From: Marchantia polymorpha subsp. ruderalis
Taxonomy: Eukaryota > Streptophyta > Marchantiopsida > Marchantiales > Marchantiaceae
Length of the DNA stretch: 64,000 nt
NCBI GenBank assembly: GCA_037833965.1
Contig: AP031352.1
Coordinates: 31,684,501-31,748,500, forward strand
Reading direction: 5' to 3'
Shown piece after piece: positions 4,260 through 60,882 of this stretch; within the stretch, counting starts at the first letter, position 1, and the number at the start of each line of letters is the position of its first letter. The notes below the pieces were generated by a model. The model was not told the DNA's origin. It saw only the letters and a list, made by a program, of their open reading frames with translations, and ran no database searches. Both the position numbers and the translations under genes were made by a program.

Positions 4260-5166
4260 ACACATGACGTTTTTTTTGTGACAATTTTCTGATATGTGAC
4301 AATATTTGACGGGTTTCTGCAAAGTATAGGGTTTTCACTACAGACTGAGTCTTTTTCTGTCGCTGACGCGTACTTTGACACTCAAACTCAGAAGAGAGTT
4401 TAGCTCAAGCCGATTGTAGAGAGATTTGTCACGAGATGACAAGGAGAGAAGTTCGGACTCTGCGTTAGAAGGTCAAGGTTGAGTTTTATGATAGTGGACG
4501 GTGACGGTTTCAGACTTGGAGTTTGGTCAAAGAGCTAGCACTCGGGTTGAGAGTGTTTGTAGGAGTGGCCGATGTGAGAGCGAACTAGATGAGCAAAGAA
4601 CTGAGCCAGGTAGTGGCAATGAAGGAGACAAGTAGGAGCGGGAACCCCCTTGCGATAAGGGTTGTGCGTAGTTAGGGCAGTAGTAGTGTTTTTGCCCCCT
4701 AGTAGAGCAGGACCCGCGAGGTCAGGGCAGCGCAGGCAGCCCCAAAGACCCCCCTCCCCCAACGGTCGAATTAGGACAGCGTGGTTAGGGCACTATGGTT
4801 CGCATAACGTGGTTGGGGATAACGTGGTTAAAATAAACGCAGTTACAATCATGGTTGCAATCGTGGTTGCAGATTGAACATAGTCGGTGAGCCAACTGTG
4901 GTCATAGTTTTTGGCTAACCAACGGTGACGGTGATAGAGATCCCAAGTGTGACGGTCGGAAATAACTGTGAAGGAATATTCTGTCATAAATATTTCTTCA
5001 AAATATTTTTCATCTAACACTAGTTAAAACTGGGTATCGTTGAAAAGCTCTCGACACGAATAAAGCATCTGGACACTTCATATGAACTGAACAATGACTC
5101 AAAAGGATGAAATTAACTCGGAAGTTGCCAATGTCTCTCATTTTTGACGTGCAGAATCGGTAGAGC
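4260..5166. other. Region between hAT and copia remnants, no gene recognised
   Basis: Contains short repeats of a GTGGTTAGGG/GTGGTTGGGG type (about 4780-4875) and only short open frames. I looked for a 5' LTR of the following copia element by comparison with its 3' LTR-like end at 8510-8731 and saw none. Confidence 0.4.
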
Positions 5167-8100
5167 GACAGGTTGGTGGCAAATTTGGATATAACATAAT
5201 ACCTTCCAATGGCCACGATGATTATTTGCTTTGGAAAAAGCAAGTAAAAGTAAAACTACGAGTTATGGGTCTCACTACATGCCTAGGAGAAAAACCTTCT
5301 AGCATAAATGAGATTGAATGTACTGCTGCTCAGGACCTTGCAGTGTGCACGGTGTTGGCATATCTAGACCCTACCATATTCAAGCAGGTTGAAAGTTACT
5401 CTGAAGTTTCCAAGTTGCTTGATGCGGTTCAGCAACATTTTCATTAGAAGAATTCGACAATTTTTATGAACACTTACATGTGATTGTTACGATTTCCTAT
5501 GAAGCTCGGCACAAGCATCCAAGATCACATTCATGCCTATGGAAATCTATATCCGCAGATAGTATTTGGGTTGGAAAATGGCTGGAGCCCTGGTCTAGAG
5601 TATCTGTGGGCAGTTCAAATGAAGTCCCGTAACTTCTTCGTCCTGGATCCAAGCTTTGTGATTCAAAAACCAATGACGACATGAGAAGATTCTTCCGAAG
5701 TTGTTGGTGGATCTTTGGAATATGAGGGAGGAGCTTACTAACAAGTAAGAAGTCAGTGCATCTTCTTCACTCATTGTCGTCTACCTATCAGACACTTTCA
5801 AAAATTCTTTGTAATTGTCAGAACACAACAGTCACTTACAACGAGGTTGTAAGTGCCCTTCTGACGGATGCGGTTGAGAAGGATTTGTTATCTCCCTCCG
5901 TCCCATCCACTTCTTGAACAGCACTTATTATGATCCAAGGTCCATAATCACAACAGAGAGAGAACCACAATTCACGGCGTTAAGGATTGAAGAGACAAAG
6001 ATCAAGATCTTCAAACCAAAGAAATGTACAGTTTATGGCTCAATCATTTGACAAGAAGAATGTTATTTGTTGGGGCTGTGGTAAGAAAAGCCACATCTTG
6101 AAGTTTTGTCGGATGACAAGTACGGCCTTCCCTTCAATAGCGAACCTTGTTGAGCATCTTGATACTGAGACGCATGATTTGTACACAAATGGCATATGAT
6201 GCCGAAATTATGCCCTTGGCAGCTCACCAAAAGTGATTTGTGATGTATAGATTCTGGACACTACTTGTTCTTATCACATTTATTACATTAGAGAGTTCTT
6301 TTGTACTTTCTCCGTATAACACAGTTCAGTTCTTATGGGGAACAAACAATCTGGTAGAATTGAAAATGTTGGATCTATAAAGATCCGCATGTTTGATAGT
6401 GTCAACCGTATTTTGAACCATGTTATGTTTATATCTAACATGAGAAAGAAGTTGATCTATCTTGGAGTGTTGGATTCACACGGCTTAGAATGGAGTTCTA
6501 GGCAAGACATGTTAGATGTCAGAACATGTGATAAGAAGGTTATTCTTCGGGAATACAAGCATAATAATTTGTACTTGTTAGAGGGCATCACTATTTGTGA
6601 CGAATTTCACTTTATCAGATCTTGTTTAGATGTCTCATGCATAGTATTCCAGATTATGCCATATGTGTGATCGATACATGTCTCTTCTTGATGAGAAAAA
6701 GGTACTTGGTTTGGGTAAAGGTGACTTGTCATTTTGTGAACATTGCATCATGTAAAAACAACATATGCAAGCTTTTCGAGTTAGAACTCATAGCTCCACA
6801 GAGACACTCGAGAATGTACATAGTGACGTGTGGGGACCCTCTCCTATTGCCTCATTGTCTAGAAAGTTGTTCTATGTCTCTTTTATAGATGATTATTCCA
6901 TGTATGTGAGCGTATATTTATTAACCCACAAGTCTGAGGTGTTTTCAACCTTCCAAACTTGGAGCATACAAGTTGAGACTCAGACTAGACACAAGGTGAA
7001 ATATTTGCGATCAGATAATGGTGGCAAGTGTATTAGTGAGGAATTTTGGAGGTATTTTACAGAGGATGGGATTACTCGTTATTTCACGACAGTTTATACT
7101 CCAAAACAAAATGTTGTTTCCAAAGACTCAATCAAACAGTATTGAAGAAGGTGCGGAGTATGCTTAGCAAATCAGGTTTACCGGGGTAATTTTGGTTTAA
7201 AGCCGTCAACACCCCAGTTTATTTGGTAAACCTTTTTACTTCTAGTGCAATCAATTTCTCAACATCGTTTGAATTGAGTCATAAACAGATAGCAGATTAT
7301 AATCGCTTGAGAAATTTTTGTTATACTGCTTAATTTAAGAAGCACAGGACAAAATTAGATCCTACATCCAAGAAATGTTGTTTTCTTGGATATGTTAGTG
7401 GCGTGAAAGGTTATAGGCTATGGGAATTAATTGCTTGTAAATTGATTGTTAGTAGAGATGTTTCTTTCAATGAGCCTAGCTTATTGAAAGAGGGGAAGAA
7501 TTTTCAGGCTTTCCGAACTTACAAGGGGAAATCTTTACTCACTTATGTTGTTATAGGGGAGTTTGATCATTCTATCACTAATGATCTGTCACATGAACAA
7601 GCACCAATGCATGTGGAGCAAGTTTTTGAGAAACATGAACTACATGAGCAGGCTATTTTGATAAGCCTATTGCAACAGTCTTAGACAAGAGAGATTAAAT
7701 GGAAACGTCTACCATGAGATCACAATGTTCTTGTAGAGCTCCTAAAAGATTTGGTATATGGGCCAACTCATCCATTTTCAAAGATCGTGACCTTACTTTT
7801 CATGATGAGGATGGTATGATGTTGATTTTGGAAGAAGGTGAAGGTGAATCTTCTTCATAGAGGGAAGTTCAAGTTTCGATCAATAAGCTTGAGTGGAATG
7901 CTGCTATGGAGCGTGAGATGCAATCACTTATTGACAACAAGACTGGGGAGTTGGTTGAGCTTCATGAAAATCAAACATTGATTGATTCCAAGTGGATGTA
8001 CAAGTTGAAAGACAATACAGCAGAACATGAGACAAGAATCTTCAAAGCCGAGTTGGTGGTTAGAGGTTTCACACACAAGAGAAGGGTGTGGATTATAACT

Positions 8101-12091: not shown

Positions 12092-13990
12092 ATGGCTGCT
12101 GCTTACTCGAATGCTCAGAGCATCAATTCTCCCTTATTTTCTTCGATTCTGTGGGTGGCAATCCCGTTGGTTGCTGTCTCCGCCGTATATCTGTATCGGC
12201 CGTGGCGAGGGATTCGCTTCCTCCGACGTCTGAGATCTATCTCGTCCAACACCGGCGGAATCACATGGCGAAACAAATACTTGTCGTTCGAAGACATGCA
12301 CGCATTGTTCGATCGCGGAGACGCGATGCTGGCCGCTATGCTCGTGGCGACGACGCTGCAGCTGGCGCACGGCGAAGTGGCCAAGGTCCTGGAGACGCAC
12401 AGCATGTACAAGCGGGACCCGTGGCGGCGTTGGGTGCGGACGCTGACATTTATCCAGCTCACCGTGCAGGCCAACTCGGCGCAGAGGTCGCAGATCGTCG
12501 CGTGGCTCAACAGACTTCATGCCAACATCAGGCTCTTCGAGTTCGAGACGAACGTGTTCGTCCTCGCGACGATCGCCTACGGCCTGGCGCAGAGCCACCA
12601 GGCGCTGGGCGCGTTTCCCACCGGCGAGAAGGACGCCATCGTGTCCAGCGTCATGAGCATGGCCGACAAGCTGAGCGCGGACGACCGGCGCAAGCCCGTG
12701 CCCACGACTTTCAGCGCCGTGGAGAAGTTCCTCGCGCCGCAGCTCAGCTCCGTCCACCTACGAAGCATCCTGGCCAGCATGTCCGCTTTGTTGGACTTAG
12801 CGCAGAAACCCCGCTTTTCCACTGCTCTCCGTCGGCCTTGGTCTTGGGCGAAATTTCTCCTGCTTCGTACTCTCGCTCGAGACATTTCTCTCAGAGTTCT
12901 GTCACCGCCAACCGCCGGTGAACCGCCGGGAGCGCTCCTCTCCCTCGCCAGAATTTTCCAGCCCTTCTGGTACCACTTCCATTACAGCGCGTGCCCGCGC
13001 GTCCTCACGCTCGCCGGCTTATTCGAGACCCTCGTCGGCTGCGATCCGTCACTGAACACCGTCGTGGACGATGTGCACCGGGAAATATTCGGCGCACCGC
13101 CGGTGGGAAAGTTCGCGCCGAGTGAAGCCCATCTGCCGCAGTTACCGAACGGAGTTGCCGGCGCAGCTCCAGCTGCGGACCTGACGAACCAGTCATTCAT
13201 CGCAGCCGTCAGGGAGCATTTGAAATGCGCGTACCTCCGAACGAGGCTGGCCGGACCGGGGAAGCAGCTCCCCCGACACCTGGGGGTCATCATGGATGGG
13301 AACCGGCGGTTCTCGCGGCAGCACGGCCTGGGCTCCGTGCTCGAGGGTCACCGGTTGGGCGCCCGGAGGCTGCTGCAGTTCATGACGTGGTCATTCAGCG
13401 TCGGGATCGACCATCTGACCGTTTGGGCGTTGTCGGACGACAATCTGAAGCGGGGGCACGAAGAGCTGGACCCGCTGTTCGCCATGATGGCGGACTTCAC
13501 GCGCGAGATCGTGATGGGCGACGCGCCCTTGGCCGTGATCGACGTCCGCATCCGCGTCGTCGGTGACCGGTCCATCCTGCCCGCGGCCTTGAACGACGCC
13601 ATAGACGCGATCGAGGAGGCGACGAAGGGCGAGAAGAAGCTCAATCTGCAGTTCGCGTTGGGCTACGGCGGGCGCAGGGAGGTCCTCCGAGCGGTGAAGG
13701 CCGCAGTCCAGGCTCGTGCCCACGAAGACTCGTCGACGATCGAAGAAGCCCTGTCTCGTCTCAGTCCCGGCGATGTGTCCAAGCACACTTACTCGGCCGA
13801 GTCCGGCGTCCCTCCGATGGACGCCATTCTGCGAACCAGCGGCGAGAAGCGCCTGAGTGGGTTCGCCTTGTGGGAGTCGCAGGAATGTGAACTCTCGTTT
13901 GTGGCGCCTAACTGGCCGGGCATGAGTCAATCCGATTTTTTGAGCTGCCTCGTGGATCTTGCGGAGAGGAAGCGCAGATTCGGAGCCTAG
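12092..13990 (+). CDS. Fusion protein: mpaB/rubber-oxygenase-like (DUF2236) domain + cis-prenyltransferase (Z-isoprenyl diphosphate synthase)
   Basis: A single uninterrupted frame of 632 codons. Residues 16-36 form a hydrophobic segment, likely a membrane anchor. Residues about 57-225 read like DUF2236, the family of ER-bound oxygenase MpaB and bacterial latex-clearing protein: QLAHGEVAKVLETHS, then a dP-x-R..RTLTF stretch (R113, R116, T117/T119), then WLNRLH (H143). H143 would be the candidate haem-ligand His by family analogy. Residues 395-631 are a cis-prenyltransferase: HLGVIMDGNRRF with catalytic Asp402, LTVWALSDDN, IRVVGDRSILP, LNLQFALGYGGRRE, RTSGEKRLSGF (581-591) and WPG. The RLSGF form and the C-terminal ERKRRFG resemble bacterial short-chain enzymes more than plant RISNF types. 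It would join IPP units to an allylic diphosphate; the oxygenase part may cleave a prenyl chain (inference). The start ATGGCTGC fits plant context. High GC and lack of introns suggest transfer from a microbe. Confidence 0.85.
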   Translation: MAAAYSNAQSINSPLFSSILWVAIPLVAVSAVYLYRPWRGIRFLRRLRSISSNTGGITWRNKYLSFEDMHALFDRGDAMLAAMLVATTLQLAHGEVAKVLETHSMYKRDPWRRWVRTLTFIQLTVQANSAQRSQIVAWLNRLHANIRLFEFETNVFVLATIAYGLAQSHQALGAFPTGEKDAIVSSVMSMADKLSADDRRKPVPTTFSAVEKFLAPQLSSVHLRSILASMSALLDLAQKPRFSTALRRPWSWAKFLLLRTLARDISLRVLSPPTAGEPPGALLSLARIFQPFWYHFHYSACPRVLTLAGLFETLVGCDPSLNTVVDDVHREIFGAPPVGKFAPSEAHLPQLPNGVAGAAPAADLTNQSFIAAVREHLKCAYLRTRLAGPGKQLPRHLGVIMDGNRRFSRQHGLGSVLEGHRLGARRLLQFMTWSFSVGIDHLTVWALSDDNLKRGHEELDPLFAMMADFTREIVMGDAPLAVIDVRIRVVGDRSILPAALNDAIDAIEEATKGEKKLNLQFALGYGGRREVLRAVKAAVQARAHEDSSTIEEALSRLSPGDVSKHTYSAESGVPPMDAILRTSGEKRLSGFALWESQECELSFVAPNWPGMSQSDFLSCLVDLAERKRRFGA

Positions 13991-35955: not shown

Positions 35956-36055
35956 GTTTAGGGTTTTGTTGAAAAGAACTCGACGCGCTTGTTCTAACGA
36001 GCCCAAGAACTCTTAGAACAGATAAGGCATCACTGAGTTATGAGTGTCGAAAGTT
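35956..36055 (+). repeat. Shared LTR hairpin module, copy in X1
   Basis: Decayed form of a roughly 100-bp module also found in X2 (38525-38625) and three times in each Y LTR. The order is a TTAGGGT entry, GTTGGAAAGA-type stem arm, CCAAGAAC, GGCATCACTGAGTTATGAGTGTCG exit. Confidence 0.75.
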
Positions 36056-36708
36056 ATTGATATGGGGCGCCTTCGGCGATTTACTCCTTCGCCTGAACGC
36101 CTTTGGCGCCAGCGCATTGATATTAGGTCAACGCCTTCGGCGATGCGACTTCGGTGGTACGCCTTCGGCGAAGACGTGCGCCTTTGGTGGAACGGAACAC
36201 CTGCGGCAAGAGCGCCTTGGGCATGACAAGAAAGAACAACGGAAACGACAAGACGCATTGACTTCGGTCAACGCCTTCGGCGGAAGACAGACGCCTTTGG
36301 CGATACGAAGAGTAAATCGAAAACCGGCTAGGGACAAAATCCTTCGCCGCCACGCCTTCGGCGATGCGCGGGCAAGGCTAAGTCGACGGACAACGGCATA
36401 ATCGAATTCAATTTTCAGGCGTGGAAGTTCGCGCAACGGCGGAGCGTGAAGCCGATTGTGCGAAGGAGGCCGTTACGTCCTCAAGACGGCGTTGCAATCA
36501 AGTGGGTCGACCCCCACTCCCAAGTGTCGAACGGTGAAATCTTGATCGCCGAAGGCAGACGTCTCATTCTTGCAATTTCGATTTCGCTCGAGAGTCGACC
36601 GCGGAGCAGGAAATCGGCGGAGAGAAATTAGAGAGAGTTGCGACTAGCGGGTGGTTGCAGGAGAGCGTGCAGCAGCTGAGTGCGCAGCCAGAGGGTTCTT
36701 ACTAGAGA

Positions 36709-38220
36709 GTGCGGGAAGCTCGCGGAGTGATTGAGTCCGCGTGCAAGAAGCTTGGGGACAGAGAACAGAGAATTCGCGGAATTCTGACGTGCGCGGCCGA
36801 ATTCAAGAACGTGATGTTGAAGGCTACGCAGCTGCGGATGATTCCGCTGAAGCTACCGCAGATTGGGTTGCGCGCATTCCAGCGCGAGCTGACTGCGGTG
36901 AAACTCGATTTCCTCCTGTGGGGATGGAATTAGGTGTGTCCGGATATGATACGCGAGTGGCTGCGGGACAAGGATCAACCTACGCGCGGATTCCGACCGC
37001 ACCCGGAGCGATGGGAAGTTAGTGACTGGGAGCAGGTGTGAGGAAGATGCGCGGGAGAAGAATGTCATCTTCTGTTCGAGTGCGAGAGTGTCAATGTTTC
37101 GAAGGAGGAAGAAGCTTCCTTCGGGGCGCTGTTCAAGCATAGCAAGTCGAGCAAGAACGGGTACAAGACTTGTGACTACAAGGATCGCTTTCGGAGGAAT
37201 GTCACGGTAGCACTCATTCAACTCTTGCAGCCGCATCGGATCACATACATAACTTCTTGGCAGGTGGGGTTTGTGGAGCTGGCGTTGTCCGGAGCTCCGA
37301 TTCATTGGGCTCGCATTCTGTGAAAAGCGACGAGACAACATGCATTCGAGGAGAAGGGAGTATCGATCAATCAACTCTCCCCCTTCTTGATCAATTTTTA
37401 TCGGTCAATGGGATGTTTGATTGTGACGGAGCGGGTACAATTTCCATTGCTGTCACGAAGCAATCCGGACCGATATGTGAAGGACGTCGAAGTCGATATT
37501 GACGAAGACGAGACACCCGCCTGCACGCCACCAACCGAGGGCGGAGGAAGAACCGCTCGCAGCACGAGTGCCGCGGAAGCGGAAGTGGGAAGGAGAAGCG
37601 GAGCAGAGCCAGCAACGCGATGCTGCTGCTCCCAATCGAAAGCGGCCGATGACGGAGGTCTGCAGTCGACTCAAGCAGAATGCTCGCAAGCTCGTCATGC
37701 CGGCAAGCAGCGCAGAAACGTGAAGAGCTGCAGAGAATAGAAACTCGCCATCCTTGGGGGAGGATGCGAGTGCAGGAATTGCGAAGAGGTCAGCGGACCT
37801 CCCTGCACCGAAGGCACGGACGCCTTCGGGTCAAGGAAGACAACATGCGGCACCGACGAATGTGCCGACGACGGACAAGTGCTTTGCTTCCGAGCAAGTA
37901 CCATTTGATGACTCGACTTCGGGTCAAGAGCCTTCGGCGCAGCAGAGGAGTGAGAAGGAGCCTTCGGCTCAAGGGCCTTCGACTCAACGGACTTTGGGTC
38001 AAGCGCCTTCGGCGCAGGCCCAATGTGAGGTAACGGCGACAGACGAAGGACGGAAGGAGGAGACACGTGTGCCTTCGGCACAGTCGCCTTCGGCACAAGC
38101 ACCTTCGGCGGTAGAAGTCTTCGGCGATGCGCCTTCGGCGGTAGCAGATCATAGCAGGAGGAGCGGACTTGTCGGGAGCCGGGTCTCCTACCGCATTAGA
38201 TATTTTGGTAGGGAGTGGAG
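36709..38220 (+). pseudogene. Decayed copy of the family X LTR-borne ORF
   Basis: One frame matches the X2 protein at 39719-40858 over its length: LRAF.REL.A.KLDFLLWGWN, P.RWEV.DW, NGYKT.DYKDRFRRNV, LLQPHRITYITSWQVGFVEL, HAFEEKG, LSPFLINFYR. It then runs into a Pro/Ser/Ala/Gln-rich tail made of CCTTCGGCG units. Stops at 36931, 37039 and 37321 interrupt it. Function unknown. Conservation of the same ORF in two LTR copies suggests it belongs to the element rather than being a chance capture. Confidence 0.7.
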
Positions 38221-38524
38221 TGTGGTACCCCACTTTTGGTATTTTTGAGGAAATTAAAACATTTTTGGAAAACTGTACCGCGGCAACAGTGTAAATAGCC
38301 TTCGGTGCATCAAAACAGAGTGAAATCGGAAGATCGCAGAGATTCTCGAGAGAACTCGTAGAATCCAGGAGTTGGGTGCAACGTCGGGGACGGACACCAC
38401 CCTACATGCGGGCTCTGAAGGAATAACCCCTTCGGCGCAAGGCGCGAAATCCGCCTTCGGCGTTGCGCCTTTGGCGCTAGAGGAATCCTTCAGGAATTGG
38501 TCAATTCCCAAACACCTCGACTTG

Positions 38525-38625
38525 GTTAGGGTCTTGTTGGAAAGAGCTCAACGCGCTGATTCTAACGAGCCCAAGAACGCCACGAACGGATGAGGACTCC
38601 GGGAGTTATGAAGGTCGCAATATAC
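38525..38625 (+). repeat. Shared LTR hairpin module, copy in X2
   Basis: TTAGGGTCTTGTTGGAAAGAGCTC, then GATTCTAACGAGCCCAAGAAC and an exit GGGAGTTATGAAGGTCG. Same order as the X1 and Y modules. Confidence 0.75.
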
Positions 38626-38634
38626 TCAGCTTCT

Positions 38635-39136
38635 CGCCTACGAGTAGGCGAGGAAAGATTGTCCTATGCGCGGACGAAGGCAGTTCGCCTACGCGTAGGC
38701 AAAATAGGGTTTGACGTTGGTGCGATGTCCGCCCCGAATGTTGCCTACTCGCAGGCGAGGAAACCTCTGCCCGAGCGGACAAGCGAAGTTCGCCTACGCA
38801 CAAGCGCTACGGCGTCGGCGGGAAATCCGCCTTCGGCCCTAGAAATGCGCCTTCGGGGTTGGAAATTGTACGGCGCCTTCCGCGCCAGCGCAGCAGCGTG
38901 GACGTGCGAGGACCCACCGGAGTAGTAAACTCCGTACGGACCGTACGGACTGTACGGACGGAACGGATGAGTGCGCCTTCGGTCGGACGGAGTTACGGCG
39001 ACAAGAGCGCCGACGGAGAGGCGAGAAATGGACAGACTCGACGGAGCCTGTTGACCGCGGTCAACGCCTTCGGCGCCAGCGCAGCAGCGCGGACGGAATT
39101 CGGCTACGCGTAGGCGAGCGCCTACGCACAAGCAGA
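38635..39136. repeat. Cluster of GCCTAC..GTAGGC palindromes (family B) with GCCTTCGGC (family A)
   Basis: CGCCTACGAGTAGGCG (38635-38650) and CGCCTACGCGTAGGC (38686-38700) are perfect or near-perfect short palindromes. Variants such as GCCTACTCGCAGGC, GCCTACGCACAAGC and GGCTACGCGTAGGC follow at about 38743, 38790 and 39109. Family B is absent from X1. The same stretch also holds several family A GCCTTCGGC units. Confidence 0.8.
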
Positions 39137-39718
39137 TGAAGTTCCGCGCAGGCGGAGATTCCGCCGGGGATTCCGCCTACGCAGAAGGGAGTTCAACTTT
39201 TGTCAGATGCGCGGACGATCGCCTTCGGCGGAGGGGGATTGGCCGAAGAGTGGTACGAACGAGTGTAGCGCGCAAGGCGAGAAATCCGCCTTCGGCGCTG
39301 TGCACCCATGTCCGCTGCGTAGTACGCTAGCGGAGTTCAAATTTGCCAATTTGAGCGTGTGAGTTAAGTCGGCGTCGGTGGATCGTGAAGCCGCGCGTGA
39401 GAGAGGAGGCCGTTATAGTGCGGAGCCGGCGCGGCCATCAAGTGATTCGACCCTCACGACCAAGAGCCGACCTTCGACCAGGAGACGGAGGACGCCCCAT
39501 CCTTGAATTCGTGATTTCATTTTCTAGTGCGAGCTGCGCGCGTCCACCTGCTAGCTGTTAAACATTCTAGACATCGCCGCGCGGAGGAGTACTTGTTGAC
39601 TGAGAGAGAATTGAGTGCGCGCGATTTGGAATTGAGGAAGATTAGAATTTGCAGAGGGAGCAAGAAGCTCGAGCGGAGCAGAGAGAGAGTTGGTGAGCAA
39701 GCTAATTTCAAGAACGCG

Positions 39719-40858
39719 ATGTCAAAACTGAACAGGTTGCGGATGCTGCCGCTCCGGCTTCCACAGAACGGGTTGCGTGCCTTCGAGGAGCGGCTGATTG
39801 CAAGAAAGCTTGATTTCTTGCTGTGGGGATGGAATTACATTTGTGTAGACATGGTGCGCGGATGGCTGGATGCGGAGCGACCACCTACGCGCGGATTGCG
39901 TCCGCACGTAGATCGGTGGACCGTCCACGATTGGGCGCAGGCATTGGGGAGGTGTGCCGGCACCGACGGGTACCTCCTCTTTGATAGTGAGAGCGTCAAG
40001 GTGTCGAAGCAGGACGAGGCGCAATTTGTGGAATTGTTCAAACGGGAGAGGTCTACCAAGAATGGGTACAAGACCCGCGACTACAAAGATCGCTTTCGCC
40101 GAACTGTAGCGTCAGCGCTGCTGCAATTGCTGCAGCCACACCGCACCTCATACATCACCTTGTGGCAGGTTTCTTTTGTGGAGCTCATCTTGGCCGGAGC
40201 TCTAGTTCACTGGGCGAGCATCCTGCACAGAGTGATGCGACAGCACGCCTTCGAGGAGAAGGGGGGAACTCTCAATCACCTCTCCCCTTTCTTGATAAAT
40301 TTCTATCGGCAGAGGAACTGTTTGACCGCGGCGGAGCTCGCTCGCTTTCCGCCATTGTCCGTCGACCATCCCGGGAAGTATGTGCGGGATAACGAGGTCG
40401 ACACCGATGCAGAGGATTCACCAGCTTCTACTCCGCCGACACGGCGGGACGAGGGAAGAAGCACACCCGCAGCAAGAGTGCCGCGGAAGCGGCGATGGAG
40501 GGAGGAATCAGAGGAGGAGCAGCATCGAGAACCCACTGCTCCCATACGACAGCGGCCACTGCACGAAGTGTGCAGCCGGCCGAATCAGAAGGCGCGCAGG
40601 CTTGTGTTACCAGCCAGCAGCGCGGATACGGCGACGATCGCCACGGAGAAGGGAAGTGCGTCACCGGAGAAGATCGAGAGAGCGCGGACGTCCGCAGGAG
40701 CGGCGGACCACGCTACACCTCCGACGGACGAGAGGCGGCCGTGGGCCAAGGGCCTCCGGAGTTACCACGTGCGAGGTAGACGAGTGTTCCGCCTACGCAC
40801 AGGCGATTTCCAGCGGATAGGCGATCTCAAGCGGACGTGGACCTCTGCCTACGCGTAG
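39719..40858 (+). CDS. LTR-borne ORF of X2, part 1 (unknown protein with WGWN motif)
   Basis: 379 residues from the first ATG; the frame is open from 39527 but without an earlier ATG. Features: LRAFEERL..KLDFLLWGWN near the start, a globular mixed region (about residues 40-200) with DRWTVHDWAQALGR, KDRFRRTVASALLQLLQPHRTSYITLWQ and LAGALVHWASIL, then an acidic, Arg- and Ser-rich low-complexity tail. The stop TAG is created inside a family B palindrome (GCCTACGCGTAGGC). It is homologous to the X1 copy at 36709-38220. I do not recognise the family. It lies in U3, upstream of the element's TATA box, on the same strand as gag. It may be a captured host gene or an element-specific accessory protein. 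Confidence 0.5.
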   Translation: MSKLNRLRMLPLRLPQNGLRAFEERLIARKLDFLLWGWNYICVDMVRGWLDAERPPTRGLRPHVDRWTVHDWAQALGRCAGTDGYLLFDSESVKVSKQDEAQFVELFKRERSTKNGYKTRDYKDRFRRTVASALLQLLQPHRTSYITLWQVSFVELILAGALVHWASILHRVMRQHAFEEKGGTLNHLSPFLINFYRQRNCLTAAELARFPPLSVDHPGKYVRDNEVDTDAEDSPASTPPTRRDEGRSTPAARVPRKRRWREESEEEQHREPTAPIRQRPLHEVCSRPNQKARRLVLPASSADTATIATEKGSASPEKIERARTSAGAADHATPPTDERRPWAKGLRSYHVRGRRVFRLRTGDFQRIGDLKRTWTSAYA

Positions 40859-40905
40859 GCAAAGAAAGTTCGCCTACGCACAGGCGGCCGCCTACGAGTA
40901 GGCAG
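40787..40905. repeat. Second cluster of family B palindromes
   Basis: CGCCTACGCACAGGCG (40790), GCCTACGCGTAGGC (40848-40861), CGCCTACGCACAGGCGGCCGCCTACGAGTAGGC (about 40871-40903). Units are separated by 5-50 bp of non-repeated DNA. They fall at the end of the LTR-borne ORF and supply its stop codon. Confidence 0.75.
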
Positions 40906-41132
40906 GATTCACCCCCGATACAACGTAGGAACGAGAAGGAGCCGGCGGAAGATCCGCCTTCGTGTCAAGGGCCTTCGGGACCAGACCCTCCGGCGTATAA
41001 CGCGCCGCGATTTGCGCCTTCGGCGCCAGGGCCTTCGGGCCAACGAGTTTTGAGCAGGGAGCGTGCGGAGACCGCACCTTCGGCGAGCAATCCGCCGGCA
41101 GATGCGCCTTCGGCGGTAGGGCCTTCGGGGCC

Positions 41133-42013: not shown

Positions 42014-45000
42014 CTACGCCCTCGGAGTGAAAGAATCTGATCTTCGATGGAATAACTTCAACTTGTCGTGGTTGACTCGATCGAAGTGACGTCCTCCTAA
42101 CTCCTTGATGTCATAAGTGAAATTTCCCCACACCTTCTCAACTATGAAAGGTCCAAAATACTTAGGAAGAAACTTTTTCCTAGCTCTCTTGTATCTAATT
42201 GCATCAAAGAGCATCACCCAATCACCTTCCTTGAACGGTTTCAAGTTCTGGTTTCCACTTCGTTTGTCGTGATACTTCTTCTGCAACTGTTGAGCCCGCT
42301 CCACTCGTACCATGGCTAGTGCTCGAGCTTCCTCCAACTCCATCAATTGTTGTTGGCGAGACTTGATGGCTTCTGCTCCATTTGATTTCTTCAACCTTTG
42401 CTGGATTGTTGTGAATGTTGTCAAGTCAAACTGTATGGGAAGTTTTGACTCAACTCCATACACCATCCGAAAAGGTGAGTATCCAGTAGATGTCTTCCAT
42501 GTTGTGCGATACTCCCATAAGATAGCATGGAGCCTCTTGTCCCAATTGTGTTTACTCCCGTCCATGTCTGCATCCTTGGCCAACATCATACACAAAGTGT
42601 AGTTGGTCCGCTCCGCCAACCCATTAGCGTTAGGTTTGTAGGAAGTGGTCACTCGAGCCTTGATGGAAAAGTGCTCCAACATGGCTTGAATCATACTTCC
42701 CACAAATTCTCCTCCTCTATCTGATACTAACTCCAATGGACAACCAAATCGAGTAATGATTCTCTCATATAAAAATCTACCAACCTCCTTCTCATTAGTA
42801 GATTTAAGTGGTCTTGCCTCTACCCACTTCGTAAGATAATCTGTAGCTATCACAATGAACTTATTCCCTCGAGGAGTAAGATTCAAAGGACCTACAAAAT
42901 CTATTCCCCACTTTTCAAAAGGACCTAACACTGGTACAGAAATCATAGGAGGGGTTTTCATGGACTTTTTAGCAAAAGCTTAACACACATCACAACTTTT
43001 GCAATATTCCACACAATCCTTAAAAATACCCTTCCAATGATAACCAGCATCAAGAATTTTGAAGGCAGTTACCTTCCCCGCAAAATGTCCTCCACATACT
43101 GCACCATCATGAAACTCCTTCATGAGTTGTAATGCCTCTCCTCTCCCAACCGCCCTTCGTAGAAGTCCGTCAGCTCCTTGATGAAAAAGTACCTTCTCCA
43201 TGATCATATATGGTTGACATCTCTTCACTAATGCATTTTTCTCCCTTTGATGCATTCCTTGAGAAAACTCTCCTTTAGAGATGAAATCCCAAATTTCCTT
43301 GTACTCCTCCGGTACTGTTGTCACCGTGTCCATGACTAGCAAGTCCTCATCCGGAAAGGTGTCATCTACTGACTGATCTCCTCCATCATCATATGCTCTC
43401 GACATCAAATCCGCATTAGCATGCTTCTTTCCAGGTCTATCCTCAATGGTATAATCAAACTCTGCTAGTAGTAGCTTCCATCTAGCTATCCTCCCTTCAG
43501 CATTAGGCTTGTTGAAAATGTATTTCAAAGCCTTATGATCAGTCACTATAGTGAATCTCCCACCCAACAAATAATGTCGAAACTTCTTAAGTGAGAAGAT
43601 TACAGCTAACGCCTCTCTCTCTGTCACTGAGTAGTTCTTCTCCGCTTGAACCATTTGTCTACTAGCATAGGCAATTGGATGATCATGCTTTTCATCATCT
43701 AATTGACTCAAGGTGCATCCTACAGCAATATTTGATGCATCTGTGTAGAGAATGAAAGGTTTACCCCAATCCGGTTTCGCCAAAATTGGAGCCGTCACCA
43801 ACGCCTTCTTGAGAACTTCGAACGCCGTCTTTGCAGCTTCATCCTTGAAAATGAGTTCGTACTCCACTCCCTTCTTCATGTAATTTGTCAAGGCATGAGC
43901 TTTGTTGGAGAAGGACAAGATGAACCGTCGATAGTACCCCACCATACCAAGGAATTGCCTCAACTTGGTTAAAGTCGCCGGAAAAGGTAACTCCATGATC
44001 CGTGTCACCTTCTCTGGGTCCACCGCTATACCATTCTTGGAGATGATATGCCCCAACAATAGGCCTTCCTCACATCCAAAAATGCATTTTTCTGGATTGA
44101 GTGAAGCCTTAGCTTCCTCCAGCCGTTGAAGTATTTTGATCAAATGATCAAAATGATCCGCTTTCCTCCCGTAAACACAAAAATCATCTATGAAATCCCT
44201 TACAAACTTTCCAATGAAAGGTTCAAACACTCTATTCATGAACCTTTGAAAAGTGGCAGGAGCATTACATAGACCAAACGGCATCACTCTAAAAGCGAAG
44301 GTTCCCCATGGAGTAGTAAAAGTTGTTTTGAGTTGGTCTTCTAAGGCAATTTGGATTTGGTTATAGCCACTATAACCATCTCCAAAACTATACCACTCAT
44401 GGCCAGCAACCTCCTCTAGAATCTCATCTATGAAAGGCAAGGGATAGTAGTCTTTCTTTGTGACAGCATTCAACTTTTTGTAATCTACGCACACTCGTAG
44501 CTTACCATTCTTCTTCTTCACTATCACAATTGGAGACACCCATTCAGAATTTTCTACCTCGTAGATGAAACCAGCCTCCTTGAGCTTGTCGATCTCCTCC
44601 TTCACCACAAGAGCCGTAGGTGGATTTATTCGGCGTTGCTTTTGCCGAATAGGACGAGCTTTCTCCTCCAACTCGATGCGATGAGTCTCCAACGTCACAT
44701 GCTTAAGATCCTTGTAACTAAAGGCAAAAACATGAATATATTTGCGAAATATATCCAGAAACTTTGCCTTTTCCTCCTTGGTAACCTTGGGACCAAACCT
44801 GAGAGTGGACAGTCGTCGACACACCTCCTCTTCGCTCATCTCCACTTTGTCAGGATCTTTCTTCACTCCAGGCCTAGGCAACAACTCCATGGCAGCAATG
44901 ACTTGTACTTGAACATTATCATCAGAAGAGTACTCCGATGATGTTTCTTGATCAGAAGTTGAGATGTCTGTGTCAACTTCTGAAAAGCTACCACTCTCTT

Positions 45001-46780
45001 CACTCTCAGATTCCCAATACTCGTCAGTTGGTCTATCTGAGTCAGTGGTGGATTCCCCTCCTCTCGTCAAAGGAACCTTAACTCGATGGTTCTTTGGGCC
45101 TATCCTCAAATAGCCCTTGTGCCATCGGTCCGTAGTCCTTACCGCCCTCAACCAAGGACGTCCCAACAGCAAGTCGTAGCTAGCTTCCTTGAGAATTTGG
45201 AAGGAAAGCAAAGTTTGCACTCCCCTCACACTAACCACAACTTTGTCTACCACCCCCAGTGGTCTTACCTTCTGTTTGTTGGCCATACCAACAATTATGC
45301 TAGAAGGTCTAGAAGGTTGCATACCCAACTTCTGCATCAACCTCTCAGACATGGCATTCACAGCCGATCCACCATCAACCAACACATCTGATACATCATG
45401 TCCATTGATCCTCACTTCGATCTTTGAAGCATGTGTACATACCTCCGAAGCAGCCGCATCCACCACCCCAACTCCCACATTGGTCATGTGAGCCTTCCCC
45501 TTAGATTTCCGCTTCTTGGTCCTTGTGGAGATAAGACCTCCTCTTAACTCCTTCCGAATGGCTGGATTCAAGGCAATCAGCTGACCAACTGTTATATTGG
45601 CCTTCTGATTTCCTACATCCTCCACCACGTCATACTTAGCTTGAGAAGATGAAATGGAAAAGTCATCCATGCCCAACTTCTTCCTTGGTACTCTTGGTTG
45701 ACTCACTCCACTTGACCGTGTACTTCGACTTGGCGTGTCCTCCATGAAAATCGACTCGTCCGCAAATCGGGCCCGCTTCTTCTCATGAGCAAGGATATCC
45801 ACTTTCGATTTTGAGCTCTCCCCTTTCTCAAAAGTGCATTGATGAGGGAATACATCAATGGATGCTACTCCCTTATCCTTGGCTTGTTGCGTGGCCGGTG
45901 CATTGTTGTTGTGCCGAACTCCATCATGTTGTCGAGGGTTAGGACAATTCCTCTGAAAATGAGGACCTCCACAAGAAAAGCAAGAAACCGCAAAGTTTCC
46001 TGAAGGTGGATTTCCTCTTGGAGGATAATTTCCATACCCCCTAGAGCCTCCTACTACGTTCTGATTCCTCTTCTCCCACAACTGTACTACATTGATCTTG
46101 AGATCTGCTAGAGTCTCCGTGATAGATTTCAACTCATTTTGAAAATCCACACTAGGATTCGCTATCGTGGATGAAGTAGAAGTGTTTGAAACAATAGACC
46201 TTCCTACAACCGGTGGAGCTACTTCTCTAGCCACCAAGCTAGAATCATCATCTTCTAAGCTCTCCTCCATTCTAATAGCAATTCGAATGGCTTCAGCCTT
46301 AGAAGAGGGCTTCTCGTATCTCACCTTACTTCGAATCTCTGGTCTCAAACCTCCAACGAAGTTCTTCATGAGCATCGCCCTTATCCCCACCATTGTAGCA
46401 TCCACTTCGTCTCCGCCCTTCCTCAACACCACGTGGAATCTAGATTCCAACTTCTCGGTTCTCTCCACATAGGTCCTCACCTTCTCGTTCTCTCCTTGTT
46501 TCAAGAAGGTGACCTCACACATCAACTTTTCATAACTTTCACTGGGAAGAAAGTTTTCGATCAGGTTCTCCGTTAATGTCTCCCACGTGTCGTCCTCCGA
46601 ATGCTCCCTCTTGTACTCCTTGTACCACTTGAGAGCAGAATCCTCCAAGAAATCCGGCAAAAGCATAGCCCACTCGTCTTTCTTCCTCTCATTGTTTCCT
46701 ATGCAAGCCCTCTTGAAGTCCCTAACAAAAGCTTCTACATCCTCATTCTCCCTCCCATAAAATACCGGAAGCTTCCCCAT
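42014..46780 (-). pseudogene. Z gag-pol polyprotein with one in-frame stop
   Basis: Starts at ATG 46780. Gag: FYGRENEDVEAFV and a WYKEYKREHSEDDTWETL stretch, with a zinc knuckle CFSCGGPHFQRNC (about 45950-45990; one residue short between Cys and His). Protease: LVDGGSAVN (about 45360-45385). RT: VSPIVIVKKKNGKLRVCVDYKKLN, FGLCNAPATFQRFM and catalytic FIDDF (about 44190). RNase H: YTDASNIAVG..TEREALAV. Integrase: HHCC zinc finger ending SCDVC, then catalytic Asp in GIDFVG (about 42900), Asp in VSDRGGEF and Glu in LAERTN. A stop TAA at 42982-42980 interrupts the frame just after the integrase zinc finger; the frame continues without shift to 42014. C>T change of a Gln codon is a simple explanation. 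No chromodomain seen. Probably non-autonomous as it stands. Confidence 0.9.
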
Positions 46781-46786
46781 TTCCAA

Positions 46787-52686: not shown

Positions 52687-52949
52687 TGTGAGCACAAAAC
52701 TGTGCTCACATGTCTTTTTACCCCTATGAGAGTTAAAAGTTTAGATTTAAGCTCTTGCAATGTTGTGCTTGGAGTTTTCTGGAAGTTTTGGCAAGATTAG
52801 GAGTTGATGTAATAGCTAGTAGGCAAAGGCGCGGAAGCGGGCCTTCGGGGCAAGGTCTTCAGCGAAGTGCCTTCGGTGAAGTTCCTTCGGGGAAAGGCCT
52901 TCGGCGAAACAGTGAAACCCTCATGACGTTTTCAATGTGTGACACCTTG

Positions 52950-53765
52950 ACTCAGTTAGTGTCTCGTTGGAAAGAGCTCGCGACGCTCGTTCCAACGAGA
53001 CCAAGAACGCTCGAAACGGATGAGGCATCACTGAGTTGTGAGTGTCGGAAGTTACTGATGGGAAGGGTTGAGGCGAGTTCGGCTCCGGACGCCTCCGGCG
53101 ACAACTGCGGACGGCTTCGGCTCCGGACGTCTTCGGCTCCAGACGCCTCCGGCGACAACTGCGGACGGCTTCGGCTCCGGACGCCTTCGTCTCCGGACGT
53201 TTTCGGCTCCGGACGCCTTCGGCGTAACAGATAACGGATAGAGGGGCCTTCGGGGAAGGGCCATCGGCGAAACAGTAAAATCAGCATATCTTTTTCATTT
53301 GTTAACGGTTTGATCTGATTAGGGATTCGTTGGAAAGAGCTCGCGACGCTCGTTTCAACGAGACCAAGAACTCTTCAAACAGATAAGGCGTCACTGAGTT
53401 ATGAGCGTCGGAAGCGGCGGATAGGGTAGGACAACATCGAACCGGAAGCTATCCAACCGGAAGCTATCTCACCGGAAGATATCCAACCGGAAGCTATCCA
53501 ACCGGAAGATATCTCACCGGAAGATATCCAACCGGAAGCTATCCAACCAGAAGACATCAAACCGGAAAACTCGCCTCCGGAGAACTCGAGGTCGGCGAAC
53601 TTCGTGCCGGCGCCTTCGGCGAAGGGTAAAACCGGCATAACTTTCTCAATTCGTAACGGTTTGACTCAGTTAGGGTCTCGTTGGAAAGAGCTCGACCTGC
53701 TCGTTCCAACGAGCCCACGAACTTGTGAAACAGAGCTAGGGTCTGTGAGTTATGGGTGTCGGGAG
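52950..53765 (+). repeat. Three hairpin modules in the Y 5' LTR (spacing about 350 bp)
   Basis: Copies at 52950-53060, 53312-53415 and 53662-53765. Copy 1 holds CTCGTTGGAA (52963-52972) and TTCCAACGAG (52990-52999), a perfect 10-bp inverted repeat around AGAGCTCGCGACGCTCG, followed by ACCAAGAAC and a GAGTTRTGAGTGTCGGAAG exit. The same module occurs once in X1 and once in X2. Each is followed by GCCTTCGGCG-type units. Confidence 0.85.
53439..53580. repeat. Tandem array of a 15-16 bp unit in the Y LTR
   Basis: About nine units of AACCGGAAGCTATCC and variants (GATATC, GACATC). Repeated unchanged in the 3' LTR at about 61511-61652. Open on the minus strand as [13 protein letters not shown] repeats, which I regard as a by-product of the array. 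Confidence 0.9.
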
Positions 53766-54674
53766 TGACTGTTATGGATAAGCAAAGGTGTGGTCGTGCG
53801 TCTTCTGCGGGTGGATGCCTTCGGCGGTGCGCGAAAGAAGATCCCCTCCGGCGGATATCGGGTGGTCAGGATGTAGAATGTACAGGTGTGGCGGCGGCGG
53901 CGGCGTGTAGTCGCGCAGGGGGAGCAGGCAGCTGCCCATCATTGCGAGTGGGGCATGCAGGCGGGCTGTGGGTGTCTCGGCCTTGGACTTCGAAGTGGAG
54001 AGTTCGGCGTGGGAGCTGAGACCTGGTGGTGTGTTCGGCCTAGTGTGCGAGAGCTTGTAGTGTACCAGTGTGCGAGAGCTGGTGGTGTGCGTGTGTGGAG
54101 ACGGAAGTGGTGTGCTCGGCCTGGGAGCTGAGATCAGAGTGGAAGACCTGAGAGTGGGATCTGAGATTGAAGTGTAATCTGTGAGTGGGAGCTGAGATCT
54201 GAGTGGAAGACCTGAGAGTGGGAGATGTGAGTGAAGTGAAATCTGAGACTGAAATCTGACAGTCGGGATCTGAATTTGAACTTGAAAAGTGAGAGTTGAA
54301 TCCGAGAGAGAAATCTGGTGGGGTCTGAAGGTGGGAGCTGAGAAGTCGACATTGAACTCTGAGTAGGAATTGGGAGTGGGACTGGTATCTAGGAAAGCCC
54401 ACAGCGGCTGTAGTATTGAGGAAGTCACCCAGAGTTGGGTTAGATCTTTATGTAACAAAGAGCTTGTCTGATGCTCTTGCGAAAATAGTAGATAGCAAGG
54501 TTATTATTTTCAGTTCTGGATAATTTGTCTGTGAAGGAGCAAGTGTTTATGATCTCATTGTCCTGAATACACTTTGAGTACATGGCTTGCAATCAGAGAA
54601 GTTAGATTATGGGAGTTCGAACCCCCACCCGGACTACAAACGCTGAAGGGTGGGAAGGTTTGGCTCACATAAAA

Positions 54675-54690
54675 TGGTGCGTCTGCCGGG
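54675..54690 (+). promoter_or_regulatory. Y primer-binding site
   Basis: TGGTGCGTCTGCCGGG, 5 nt after the LTR end; gag-pol ATG follows at 54706, leaving almost no leader. Confidence 0.65.
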
Positions 54691-54705
54691 AGCCTGATCT
54701 TGTAA

Positions 54706-57700
54706 ATGCAGAATAGGACTAGATCGCACAAACCAAACCTGGAGCCAGGATTGGAGAAACCTGTTCGCAGTAGGAAGAAACCTGAGAATAAGGAAATCGA
54801 GGAAGAAATTAAACTTGAGATATTTCTGAACGTAGACCCTGTTGATGAGTCTTTGTTAGAAGGTTTAGAGATTGTAGAACCTGACAGTGAGAGGTTGGTG
54901 GAGGAATCTGCTAGCATGGCTGACGATGGAGGGAGAGCAGGACCTCCTTCTAGTCCTCCCATAGACCCACTCGTGAGGCCAAGAGGCCTTCCTATTCAGG
55001 TTCCACAGAACTTGGCAGCTGTGGTCATGCCACCCAATCTGCCTAAGTTCTATGGGACGAAGGATGAGGATCCTTCAAGGCACATGGAAAGATATGTTGA
55101 GAGGCTAGCCAGCTCTCTGATTACAGATCCAGGGTATTTTTTTGTCTGGTTTCCTACTACCCTGGAAGGTGAGGCGTATGAGTGGTATAGGGATCATTCT
55201 GAAGGTCATTTTGGGGGATGGGATCAGATGCAAAGGGAGTTCTTGAATGAGTTTAGGCCTGAGGTGGGGCAGGGTTCTGCATTGAGAGCTTTGGCATCGT
55301 TAAAACAGGGAAGGGAAGAGGAAATCTCAGCTTACATTAGAAGATTTGATCTGGTTTGTGCGCGTTTTGTGGGTACAATGCTCAATGACGATACGCTGAG
55401 ACAATTTTTTATCCAAGGTTTTTTCAAATCTGGGACCATCCGAGGGGTGCTGGAGAGAAGCCCTCAAACTCTTGCTGAGGCCAAGATGGCTGCCAGAGAG
55501 ATAGAGAATATTGACAAGGACTATGATAGATTGTGGAGGAAGGAGGATGAATCCATTCCTCAGTTCATCCCAATTCGTCCAAGACCAATTGAAGGAGACT
55601 CAGGTAGGCATAGGGGTCAAGCTCCCTATTCTCTCAGTGAGTCAATTTCGCAGACCAGAGAGCCAGCACCTGTTTTAGCATTGCCAGCCCCTACTGTAGA
55701 TCCTAACCTGGCAGATGTAGAGAAAAGATTAAATGCTAGCCAAGTGGGCTTTCAAGAGACCATGATGAAGCAAATGCAAAATATTACAGATCAGATGGCC
55801 TTGATGATCAGGAGTCAACAGCCAGGGCCTCCTCCTCCAGTCGAGTCAGGTAGACATTCATCAAGCATGTGGTGTGTCCAGTGTGGTCAATCTGGTCATA
55901 CCAGGCAATTTTGTAGGGTGGTGCCAAACCGTGACAACAGAATGAGCGGTGGCCCACCTGTGCAACACCAAAGGGGCCAAGGACCAAATTACCAAGGTCA
56001 AAACGGGTACAGAGTACCTCCTAGGGGTCAGGTTGGTCAGAACATGGAGAGAAAAGAATTACATGCATTTTTTGGTAGGTGGCACTATCCAGGTCAGTGT
56101 TGGTCTGAGGTTGGGGTTAATGGGTGTAGTAATTGTGGATGTAGTCATCCCTCTGACCAATGTCGGCAGCCAGATAAAGTTATTAGGATGCCTCAGCCTA
56201 CTGTTAGTCCTTACCAGGCGAGAGAAAATATGAGGGATGCAAGACCGCAGAATGAGCATTCTAACAATCTTAGACCTTCTAACTTGTATTATGATCATGA
56301 GAACGGCAAACAGACATTCAATCCACCTGTTGGACTGCAGACAGTGAACAGATATATTCCCATCCAGAGTGAACCACGAGATGAACCTCGTAGTGACAAC
56401 AGAAAACAGGTTTCTTTTGCAGATCCATGTTCTTCAAACTCTCAAGATGCTAGGTTTGCAAACGATGATGGAGATGTCCAACGTAGTAGTTCTGATCTTG
56501 GTAAGGGGATAGTCGAACAAGGGCAGAATCAGTGGCCTCCACATACTAACCTGATTACTTATAAGTTGAAAAATTCGGATGATGTGATTATGCATGAAGC
56601 TCCGGCCCTTGCTGTCACCACCAGAGCTGTGCATCGCAAGATGCAAACTGAGAAAAATGAAGATGAGCAAGGGGAGACTTCATCTAAGGAGCCTCCTCAT
56701 CTCTCTGATCTTGAGAGAGTGGCGAGGAGAGCAAGGAGGATTACAAGGGCAGAGGAGAAAAGAGATGAGGTTCTACATGATGCAGAGGTGCCACCTGTCA
56801 CGCAAGATTCAGAAAGCAATCAATCACGAGAGTGGGAAGGAACTGGGATTCCTGTGACAGAGTGGAAGAACATGAGAGGTCAGAGAAGGAGAGAGTCGGA
56901 GAAGTACAATTTGTGGTCAGATCTGAGTTCGCTGAAGGCAGACATTACTTTTGGTCAGCTGCTGGAAATATCTCCCATTGCTCGTAAGACTTTGAAGGAG
57001 GGCATTCCAGTGCATAGAAGGAGTAGAAAGACGAAGACTAGAGTCGCTGCTAGAGTTCATTTGCAAAAAGGAAGTCAGGATGTCAAACCTGTGGAGATAG
57101 AGGTGGTAGTGGTAGACAAGGTGATTCCCAATGTATTAGTTGATGGGGGTAGTGGTTTGAACATCCTACCTGAACACACCATGAGAAAGTTAGGTTTGAA
57201 TCTGACAGGCCCCTCACCTTTCATTATCAATATGGCCAATCAGACTTCAGCTGTACCAGTGGGGATGATTAAAGATTGCAGGTTGTCCACTGGTGGTGAG
57301 GAGTACATTGTCACATTTCATGTGATTAAGATGCATTCGAACAGGGACACCTTTCCCATTCTATTGGGCAGACCTTGGTTGAGAATGGCTAATGCAATTG
57401 TGGATTGGGGAGGATTGAAGCCATCAATCACATATGGTCCTCATGATAACAGAGTCAAGGTGTCAATAGGGTCATTAGGTGGAAGGGTGAGAGAGGATCC
57501 TGAGTTATCTTCAGGGAAGGAAGAAGAGAAAAACGAGGCCAAGTGTGATGACACTTTAGTGGGAGTGGTTCATTTGAATGACAGAAAAAATAGATTAGAT
57601 GTAGGATCAGGTAGCTTGGGCCCTAGTTTTTACAGCAAAAGCGATGATGGAGAGTTTGCTCAGTGGTTGAGAGATTATCCTGAGTCAGGTTGTGACGCCA

Positions 57701-60825: not shown

Positions 60826-60882
60826 AGCTGTCTAGCCTGCAGAGCTAGGATTCTGGAATCGTCCCCTGATGGTCGCCAATGA
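60826..60882 (+). other. Y 3' untranslated segment
   Basis: Only 57 bp between the gag-pol stop and the 3' LTR. I see no clear polypurine tract; CCTGATGGTCGCCAATGA precedes the LTR, which is atypical. Confidence 0.6.

What the first reader, a model, noticed from the sequence alone, without database searches (positions are those of the whole stretch)
12092..13990. Fusion of an mpaB/latex-clearing-type oxygenase domain with a cis-prenyltransferase
Seen: one uninterrupted 632-codon frame with a membrane segment, a DUF2236-like region (QLAHGEVAKVLETHS, R113/R116, T117/T119, H143) and a full cis-prenyltransferase with MDGNRRF and RTSGEKRLSGF. Known: DUF2236 proteins include fungal MpaB, which oxidatively cleaves a farnesyl chain, and bacterial latex-clearing protein, which cleaves cis-polyisoprene. 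Inference: the protein could make a cis-prenyl chain and cut it to a carbonyl-ended product in one polypeptide. Intronless structure, high GC and bacterial-type motifs suggest horizontal transfer into a plant. I know of no described protein of this architecture.
Basis: partly seen in the sequence, partly recalled or inferred. Interest (0 to 1): 0.9.

Follow-up and report, generated by a model that had tools for sequence, protein, structure and literature searches.

The report
Prenyl-chain synthase fused to haem oxygenase
A liverwort gene, with relatives in other liverworts and in some fungi, encodes one protein that joins an enzyme that builds cis-prenyl chains to a haem-type enzyme whose known kin cut carbon double bonds; some bacterial plasmids carry the same two enzyme types as neighbouring genes, which suggests that the two work together.

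The parts
12092..13990 (+). Coding sequence of the fusion protein, 632 aa, one uninterrupted frame
   Evidence: start codon supported by Marchantia paleacea P0058, which begins with the similar MAAAYSS; full match at G000:C3:31696592-31698487
12131..12193 (+). N-terminal hydrophobic (probable membrane) segment, residues about 14-34
   Evidence: hydropathy; helix 14-34 in model
12248..13093 (+). DUF2236 / MPAB_Lcp oxygenase domain, residues 53-334 (Pfam match 76-264)
   Evidence: PF09995; structure match to 8s1j over 53-334 and to Lcp 5o1l/5o1m over 63-333; HH alignment to bacterial MpaB proteins, probability 98.1
12428..12442 (+). R113, R116, T117: inferred positions of Lcp R164/K167/T168 (distal haem side)
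   Evidence: spacing and HH alignment; kept in 39, 42 and 42 of 42
12518..12520 (+). H143: predicted proximal haem ligand (Lcp H198)
   Evidence: 42 of 42; aligned with a His of the bacterial MpaB profile
13103..13189 (+). Low-confidence linker between the domains, residues 338-366
   Evidence: pLDDT under 50
13265..13984 (+). cis-prenyltransferase domain, residues 392-631
   Evidence: PF01255; PDB matches led by Rv1086 short-chain Z-isoprenyl diphosphate synthase
13295..13309 (+). DGNRR motif, residues 402-406
   Evidence: D402, N404, R405, R406 42 of 42
13424..13435 (+). WALS, residues 445-448, followed by DDNL; the UppS rows compared read YAFS(S/T)ENW here
   Evidence: WALSxDNLxR also in cis-geranylfarnesyl diphosphate synthase 8wu7
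13832..13864 (+). RTSGEKRLSGF, residues 581-591
   Evidence: R581, T582, E585, R587, S589 42 of 42

Best explanation
A membrane-anchored, bifunctional enzyme of specialised terpenoid metabolism. The C-terminal half elongates an allylic diphosphate with isopentenyl diphosphate into a short or medium (about C10-C25) Z-prenyl diphosphate. The N-terminal half, a haem b DUF2236 oxygenase of the MpaB/Lcp/anethole-oxygenase fold with H143 as proximal ligand, receives that chain or a product made from it and inserts O2 at a double bond, most likely cutting it to a carbonyl-ended (aldehyde or ketone) shortened terpenoid. The gene most simply passed between ascomycete fungi and a liverwort ancestor and was kept. 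Shown: both domains, intact CPT catalytic and haem-site positions, a conserved fusion, and a separate bacterial gene pair of the same two types. Inferred: membrane location, haem binding, chain length, coupling of the two steps, cleavage, product, transfer.
Confidence: 0.5

Rival explanations
1. Same two active domains, but the oxygenase does not cut the chain: it hydroxylates, epoxidises or otherwise oxidises the Z-prenyl product, or acts on a terpene made from it downstream.
For: The evidence for an oxygenase domain and for coupling to a CPT does not identify the reaction; Lcp's catalytic base Glu148 could not be placed in this domain, and the nearby acidic positions E95 (26 of 42) and E101 (3 of 42) are not invariant.
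Against: Lcp cleaves double bonds; t-anethole oxygenase is recalled as doing so (one search gives only its name); MpaB' is the ER-bound oxygenase that supplies the intermediate entering beta-oxidation (that it does so by cleaving a farnesyl chain is recalled).
Confidence: 0.25
2. The N-domain is a catalytically silent membrane anchor and partner for the CPT, as NgBR is for eukaryotic CPTs.
For: Eukaryotic long-chain CPTs need a membrane partner (recalled; the human complex appears); hydrophobic segment at the N-terminus.
Against: The haem-site residues R116, T117 and H143 are among the domain's invariant positions (42/42), unexpected for a mere anchor; the matched fold is DUF2236; on Streptomyces plasmids the same two enzyme types are made as separate genes.
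Confidence: 0.15
3. The CPT half is the neryl diphosphate source for limonene (the MpCPT of Kumar et al. 2016), and the N-domain has a minor role.
For: Limonene in Marchantia is reported to come from neryl diphosphate, with an MpCPT co-expressed with oil-body genes (passages of PMC9680858 and PMC13068942).
Against: Which gene is MpCPT could not be established: Kumar et al. is not held and the own genome has five further CPT places besides this gene and its broken copy. Fungi keep the same fusion.
Confidence: 0.1
4. Assembly artefact, contamination or a chance read-through of two genes.
For: High GC (0.622, GC3 0.787) against 0.35-0.45 in the flanks.
Against: Same fusion in Marchantia paleacea, Riccia, Calypogeia and ascomycetes, aligned across both domains; chromosome-scale contig; liverwort rows form one group.
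Confidence: 0.01

Closest known systems
Short-chain Z-isoprenyl diphosphate synthase Rv1086 (PDB 2vg1/2vfw)
   Different: The solved chain is a CPT alone; Leu where this protein has Ala446
cis-Geranylfarnesyl diphosphate synthase of Streptomyces clavuligerus (8wu7)
   Same: Shares the WALSxDNLxR stretch
   Different: The solved chain is a CPT alone; lower overall score (E 4.3e-33)
t-Anethole oxygenase (8s1j) and latex-clearing protein Lcp (5o1l, 5o1m)
   Same: Matched fold; for Lcp also the R/T/H haem pattern
   Different: 10-11% identity; no CPT domain in the solved chains; Lcp has Lys167 where this has Arg116
Fungal ER-bound oxygenase MpaB'
   Same: Family for which PF09995 is named; ER-bound oxygenase
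   Different: No CPT domain (recalled); works on an aromatic meroterpenoid (recalled)
Streptomyces plasmid CPT-MpaB gene pair (for example L083, L085, L098)
   Same: Same two enzyme families encoded side by side
   Different: Two genes, CPT first; UppS-type CPT; oxygenase has C-terminal EF hands

Membership tests
cis-prenyltransferase (PF01255) | Whole-domain profile match over cut-off | tested here: met
   188.5 bits, cut-off 27, profile 1-219 of 219
cis-prenyltransferase (PF01255) | Catalytic Asp of DGNRR and the RTSGExRxSGF motif with downstream Glu | tested here: met
   D402, R405, R406, R581, R587, S589, E600 in 42 of 42; that these are the catalytic ones is recalled
cis-prenyltransferase (PF01255) | CPT fold | tested here: met
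short-chain Z-prenyl diphosphate synthases | Groups with short-chain Z-synthases, not with UppS | tested here: met
   15 fusion rows with 9 prokaryotic rows, 3 of these named short-chain Z-isoprenyl diphosphate synthase by a source, 100/99; the 4 UppS rows on the other side. The fusion branch is long (1.33) and the source names are automatic
short-chain Z-prenyl diphosphate synthases | Product C10-C25 | not testable with these tools
   needs enzyme assay; Ala446 is unlike Rv1086
DUF2236 / MPAB_Lcp oxygenases (PF09995) | Profile match over cut-off | tested here: met
   57.4 bits, cut-off 23; 42 of 42 aligned proteins at E <= 0.001
DUF2236 / MPAB_Lcp oxygenases (PF09995) | Nearly invariant R/T/H haem-pocket residues | tested here: met
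   R113 39/42, T117 42/42, H143 42/42, aligned to a bacterial MpaB profile; equivalence to Lcp numbering rests on spacing and that alignment, as no Lcp sequence was in hand
DUF2236 / MPAB_Lcp oxygenases (PF09995) | DUF2236 fold | tested here: met
DUF2236 / MPAB_Lcp oxygenases (PF09995) | Binds haem b and cleaves an alkene with O2 | not testable with these tools
   needs expressed protein
Rubber oxygenase Lcp proper | Lys167 distal ligand | tested here: not met
   Arg116 in 42 of 42 at the position inferred for it
Rubber oxygenase Lcp proper | Acts outside the cell on polyisoprene | not testable with these tools
   hydrophobic N-terminal segment would fit an anchored protein; location not tested

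The most novel reading that the evidence does not exclude
A synthesise-and-cut terpenoid enzyme: a single polypeptide that builds a Z-prenyl chain and oxidatively cleaves it, giving carbonyl-ended short terpenoids, which evolved by fusion in the fungal/liverwort line and separately as a two-gene unit on actinobacterial plasmids with a different class of CPT. This would be a new route to apo-terpenoids that starts from dedicated Z-prenyl diphosphates instead of carotenoids or meroterpenoids.
Probability: 0.4. Interest if true: 0.88.

Novelty: new variant of a known kind. Interest (0 to 1): 0.76.

Why it matters
If true it links two enzyme families usually studied apart: cis-prenyltransferases, and the DUF2236 oxygenases, few of which have a known natural substrate (recalled). 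A DUF2236 domain fused to, or encoded beside, the enzyme that may make its substrate makes that substrate directly testable. It would also add a tailoring enzyme, not only terpene synthases, to the terpenoid genes shared by fungi and liverworts, in a genetically tractable plant whose genome showed one intact copy.

Tried and rejected
Assembly artefact or chance read-through: rejected. Bacterial contamination: rejected (32.6 Mb contig; liverwort grouping).

Search for an oxygenase gene near the closest prokaryotic CPT relatives: none found. PF09995 gave no match in five whole genomes of those loci. So no immediate bacterial source of the fusion was found.

DUF2236 half alone against the protein database gave 2 of 6391 candidates: the window's own protein and one M. 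paleacea protein. tblastn of that half against plasmids gave only 4 hits at E 3-9, not significant by themselves; they were followed because all 4 are annotated MpaB-family oxygenases, and 3 of the 4 turned out to have a CPT gene next door. The fourth (Kitasatospora) has none in the 3.4 kb read.

Foldseek with the N-domain found no match at E <= 0.001; the best, 8s1j, had E 0.063 and probability 1.00. VIA-align gave the DUF2236 matches. Sequence searches of the PDB did not list Lcp.

Direction of transfer: with prokaryotic outgroup, 10 liverwort rows hold together at 79/66 and 14 fungal plus metagenome rows at 82/68; neither is firm and neither lies inside the other, so direction is open. Old vertical descent with many losses was not tested. 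A viral-contig scan with the Streptomyces oxygenase confirmed nothing. Literature: no title, abstract start or passage that I saw describes the architecture; most listed papers were not opened. The 'mpab' counts for PMC9680858 and PMC13068942 appear to be the transporter name MpABCG1.

Full report
What is there. Window 12092-13990 on the + strand is one open frame of 632 codons. Pfam finds two domains, both well over their cut-offs: PF09995, 'ER-bound oxygenase mpaB/B'/Rubber oxygenase, catalytic domain', at 76-264 (57.4 bits, cut-off 23) and PF01255, cis-prenyltransferase, at 400-631 (188.5 bits, cut-off 27). One hydrophobic segment lies at about 14-34. A low-confidence linker, 338-366, joins the halves in the model. 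The gene has GC 0.622 and GC3 0.787, against 0.35 in the 3 kb stretch upstream (9-12 kb) and 0.45 downstream (14-17 kb).

It is a real, conserved fusion. The protein search returned 56 hits, of which 46 carry both domains by the database's own annotation; one of the 46, P0002, is the window's own protein in a shorter model (scoring limited to the 7999 candidates sharing most words). Named sources among the 56 are liverworts (Marchantia paleacea, Riccia fluitans, Riccia sorocarpa, Calypogeia fissa; M. polymorpha for P0048) and ascomycete fungi (Orbilia, Arthrobotrys, Dactylella, Dactylellina, Fusarium, Thelonectria, Clonostachys and Zarea with both domains annotated for at least one protein; Ilyonectria and Bacidia with the CPT alone annotated); the rest carry no name of an organism. 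No named moss, hornwort, vascular plant, animal or prokaryote is in that list. 41 of the 56 were aligned with the window protein; all 42 match both Pfam families.

Copies in the genome. The search with the protein found one intact copy, this one. A second copy on C5 (7469400-7470961) is split between frames with a stop inside, has Gln where H143 should be and Gly where R581 should be by eye, and corresponds to the annotated MpCPT3 (P0048); it looks like a decaying gene. In M. paleacea its nearest relative in the tree, P0003, is full length with both domains. The genome has two other PF09995 places, both on C4, and five further CPT places, four of them (C9 and three on C4) matched in two pieces, as genes with introns would be, and one on C3 in a single frame.

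The C-terminal half. D402, R405, R406, R581, R587, S589 and E600, the catalytic positions as I recall them, are kept in 42 of 42. The nearest solved sequence is Rv1086, a short-chain Z-isoprenyl diphosphate synthase (again best with the profile). In a tree of 40 rows the 15 fusion CPTs group with 9 prokaryotic rows, 3 of them named short-chain Z-isoprenyl diphosphate synthase by a source, away from the UppS rows (100/99). All 42 have WALS at 445-448, and 38 of 42 Leu at 452, where the UppS rows shown read YAFSTENW or YAFSSENW; a cis-geranylfarnesyl diphosphate synthase shares WALSxDNLxR. I take this to favour a C10-C25 product, as an inference; Ala446 stands where Rv1086 has Leu, which I recall as its length determinant.

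Pairing in bacteria. tblastn of the N-half against plasmids gave four non-significant hits (E 3-9), all annotated 'oxygenase MpaB family protein'. Three of these four have a polyprenyl diphosphate synthase gene immediately upstream. Searching with one of these oxygenases and its CPT found seven plasmid records in which both adjoin: S. cavourensis, S. anulatus, KN37 and NBC_01471 by annotation and NBC_01237, NBC_01340 and NBC_01562 by touching match coordinates. In the annotated pairs of S. cavourensis, S. anulatus and KN37 the genes overlap by 4 nt; in NBC_01471 the annotated gap is 143 nt. These seven are all the records with 60% identity or more among the 20; of the 13 others, four annotated neighbourhoods were read and none has a CPT, one is unannotated and eight were not opened. 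In the 30 kb around three pairs no other gene is annotated as a terpenoid enzyme. Pfam confirms CPT (three proteins) and PF09995 with C-terminal EF hands (three proteins). The four pair CPTs put in the tree sit in a clade of ten with the four UppS rows (100/100), the fusion CPTs outside it. So oxygenase and CPT appear to have been brought together at least twice, with different CPT types and in opposite order. This is the strongest hint that the oxygenase acts on the CPT's product. The seven pairs are close relatives and count as one event.

How it most likely works. Membrane-anchored; CPT makes a Z-prenyl diphosphate; the haem domain oxidises a double bond of that chain or of a product derived from it, most likely by cleavage as in Lcp and, as I recall, anethole oxygenase and MpaB'. 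MpaB' is ER-bound and supplies the intermediate that enters beta-oxidation in mycophenolic acid biosynthesis (PMC12591190, passages). Cleavage is the least certain step; hydroxylation or epoxidation is the main rival, a silent anchor the second.

Evolution. An unrooted full-length tree splits 17 liverwort rows from 27 others (13 named fungi, 14 unnamed) with 100/100. With prokaryotic CPTs as outgroup both sides are weakly supported groups (79/66 and 82/68), so neither 'fungus to liverwort' nor the reverse is shown. Presence in both Marchantia/Riccia and Calypogeia, which belong to different liverwort classes (recalled), implies an old acquisition in liverworts. Transfer of fungal-type terpene synthases to bryophytes is published for Marchantia (PMC12890914: abstract and one section read); none of six CPT-related terms occurs in its main text.

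Relation to what is known. In Marchantia, limonene is reported to come from neryl diphosphate, with an MpCPT co-expressed with oil-body genes (PMC9680858 and PMC13068942, passages, citing Kumar et al. 2016, not held). Whether that MpCPT is this gene is unknown. I found no paper that describes the CPT-DUF2236 architecture (search listings; most listed papers were not opened, and the library lacks most subscription papers). Source names are mostly 'hypothetical' or 'unnamed' protein, or name one domain.

Verdict. The sequence claim is confirmed and strengthened; the chemical claim is plausible but untested. Both enzyme families are known, their union is not described in what I could search, hence 'new variant of a known kind'.

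Noticed in passing
G000:C5:7469400-7470961 (L111 about 4898-6381): Second, broken copy of the fusion in the same genome (annotated MpCPT3): Gln at the haem-His position, Gly at the R581 position, frames split.
   Followed up: partly
L083, L085, L082: Streptomyces plasmid MpaB-family oxygenases paired with a CPT carry C-terminal EF hands.
   Followed up: partly
L092 5119-6732: Streptomyces tendae plasmid gene annotated uppS is a fusion of a squalene/phytoene-synthase domain with a CPT.
   Followed up: partly
L099 3974-6597: Aureimonas plasmid: a CPT gene overlaps by 4 nt a gene with a linalool dehydratase/isomerase domain: another CPT paired with a terpenoid-type enzyme.
   Followed up: partly
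window 52687-62530: Long retroelement frame (54706-60825, 2039 aa; gag, reverse transcriptase, RNase H, integrase) with identical 300-nt direct repeats on either side (52687-52986/60883-61182 and 53202-53501/61274-61573), probably LTRs; the same 228-aa frame recurs at 53772-54458 and 61844-62530.
   Followed up: partly
window 42014-46786 (-): A further Ty3-type gag-pol in two frames.
   Followed up: no
window 36001-41000: GC-rich stretch (0.55-0.60) with a 443-aa frame at 39527-40858 that matches no Pfam family at E <= 0.001.
   Followed up: no
G000:C4:26192883-26193512 and C4:13265987-13266370: Two other PF09995 (DUF2236) places in the same genome; on C4 CPT matches lie elsewhere.
   Followed up: no
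Marchantia paleacea Mapa_010395 and Mapa_010397 (P0058, P0059): The relatives closest to the window gene's two halves are annotated as two proteins with near-consecutive numbers on contigs of the same length; gene-model split or real break not resolved.
   Followed up: no
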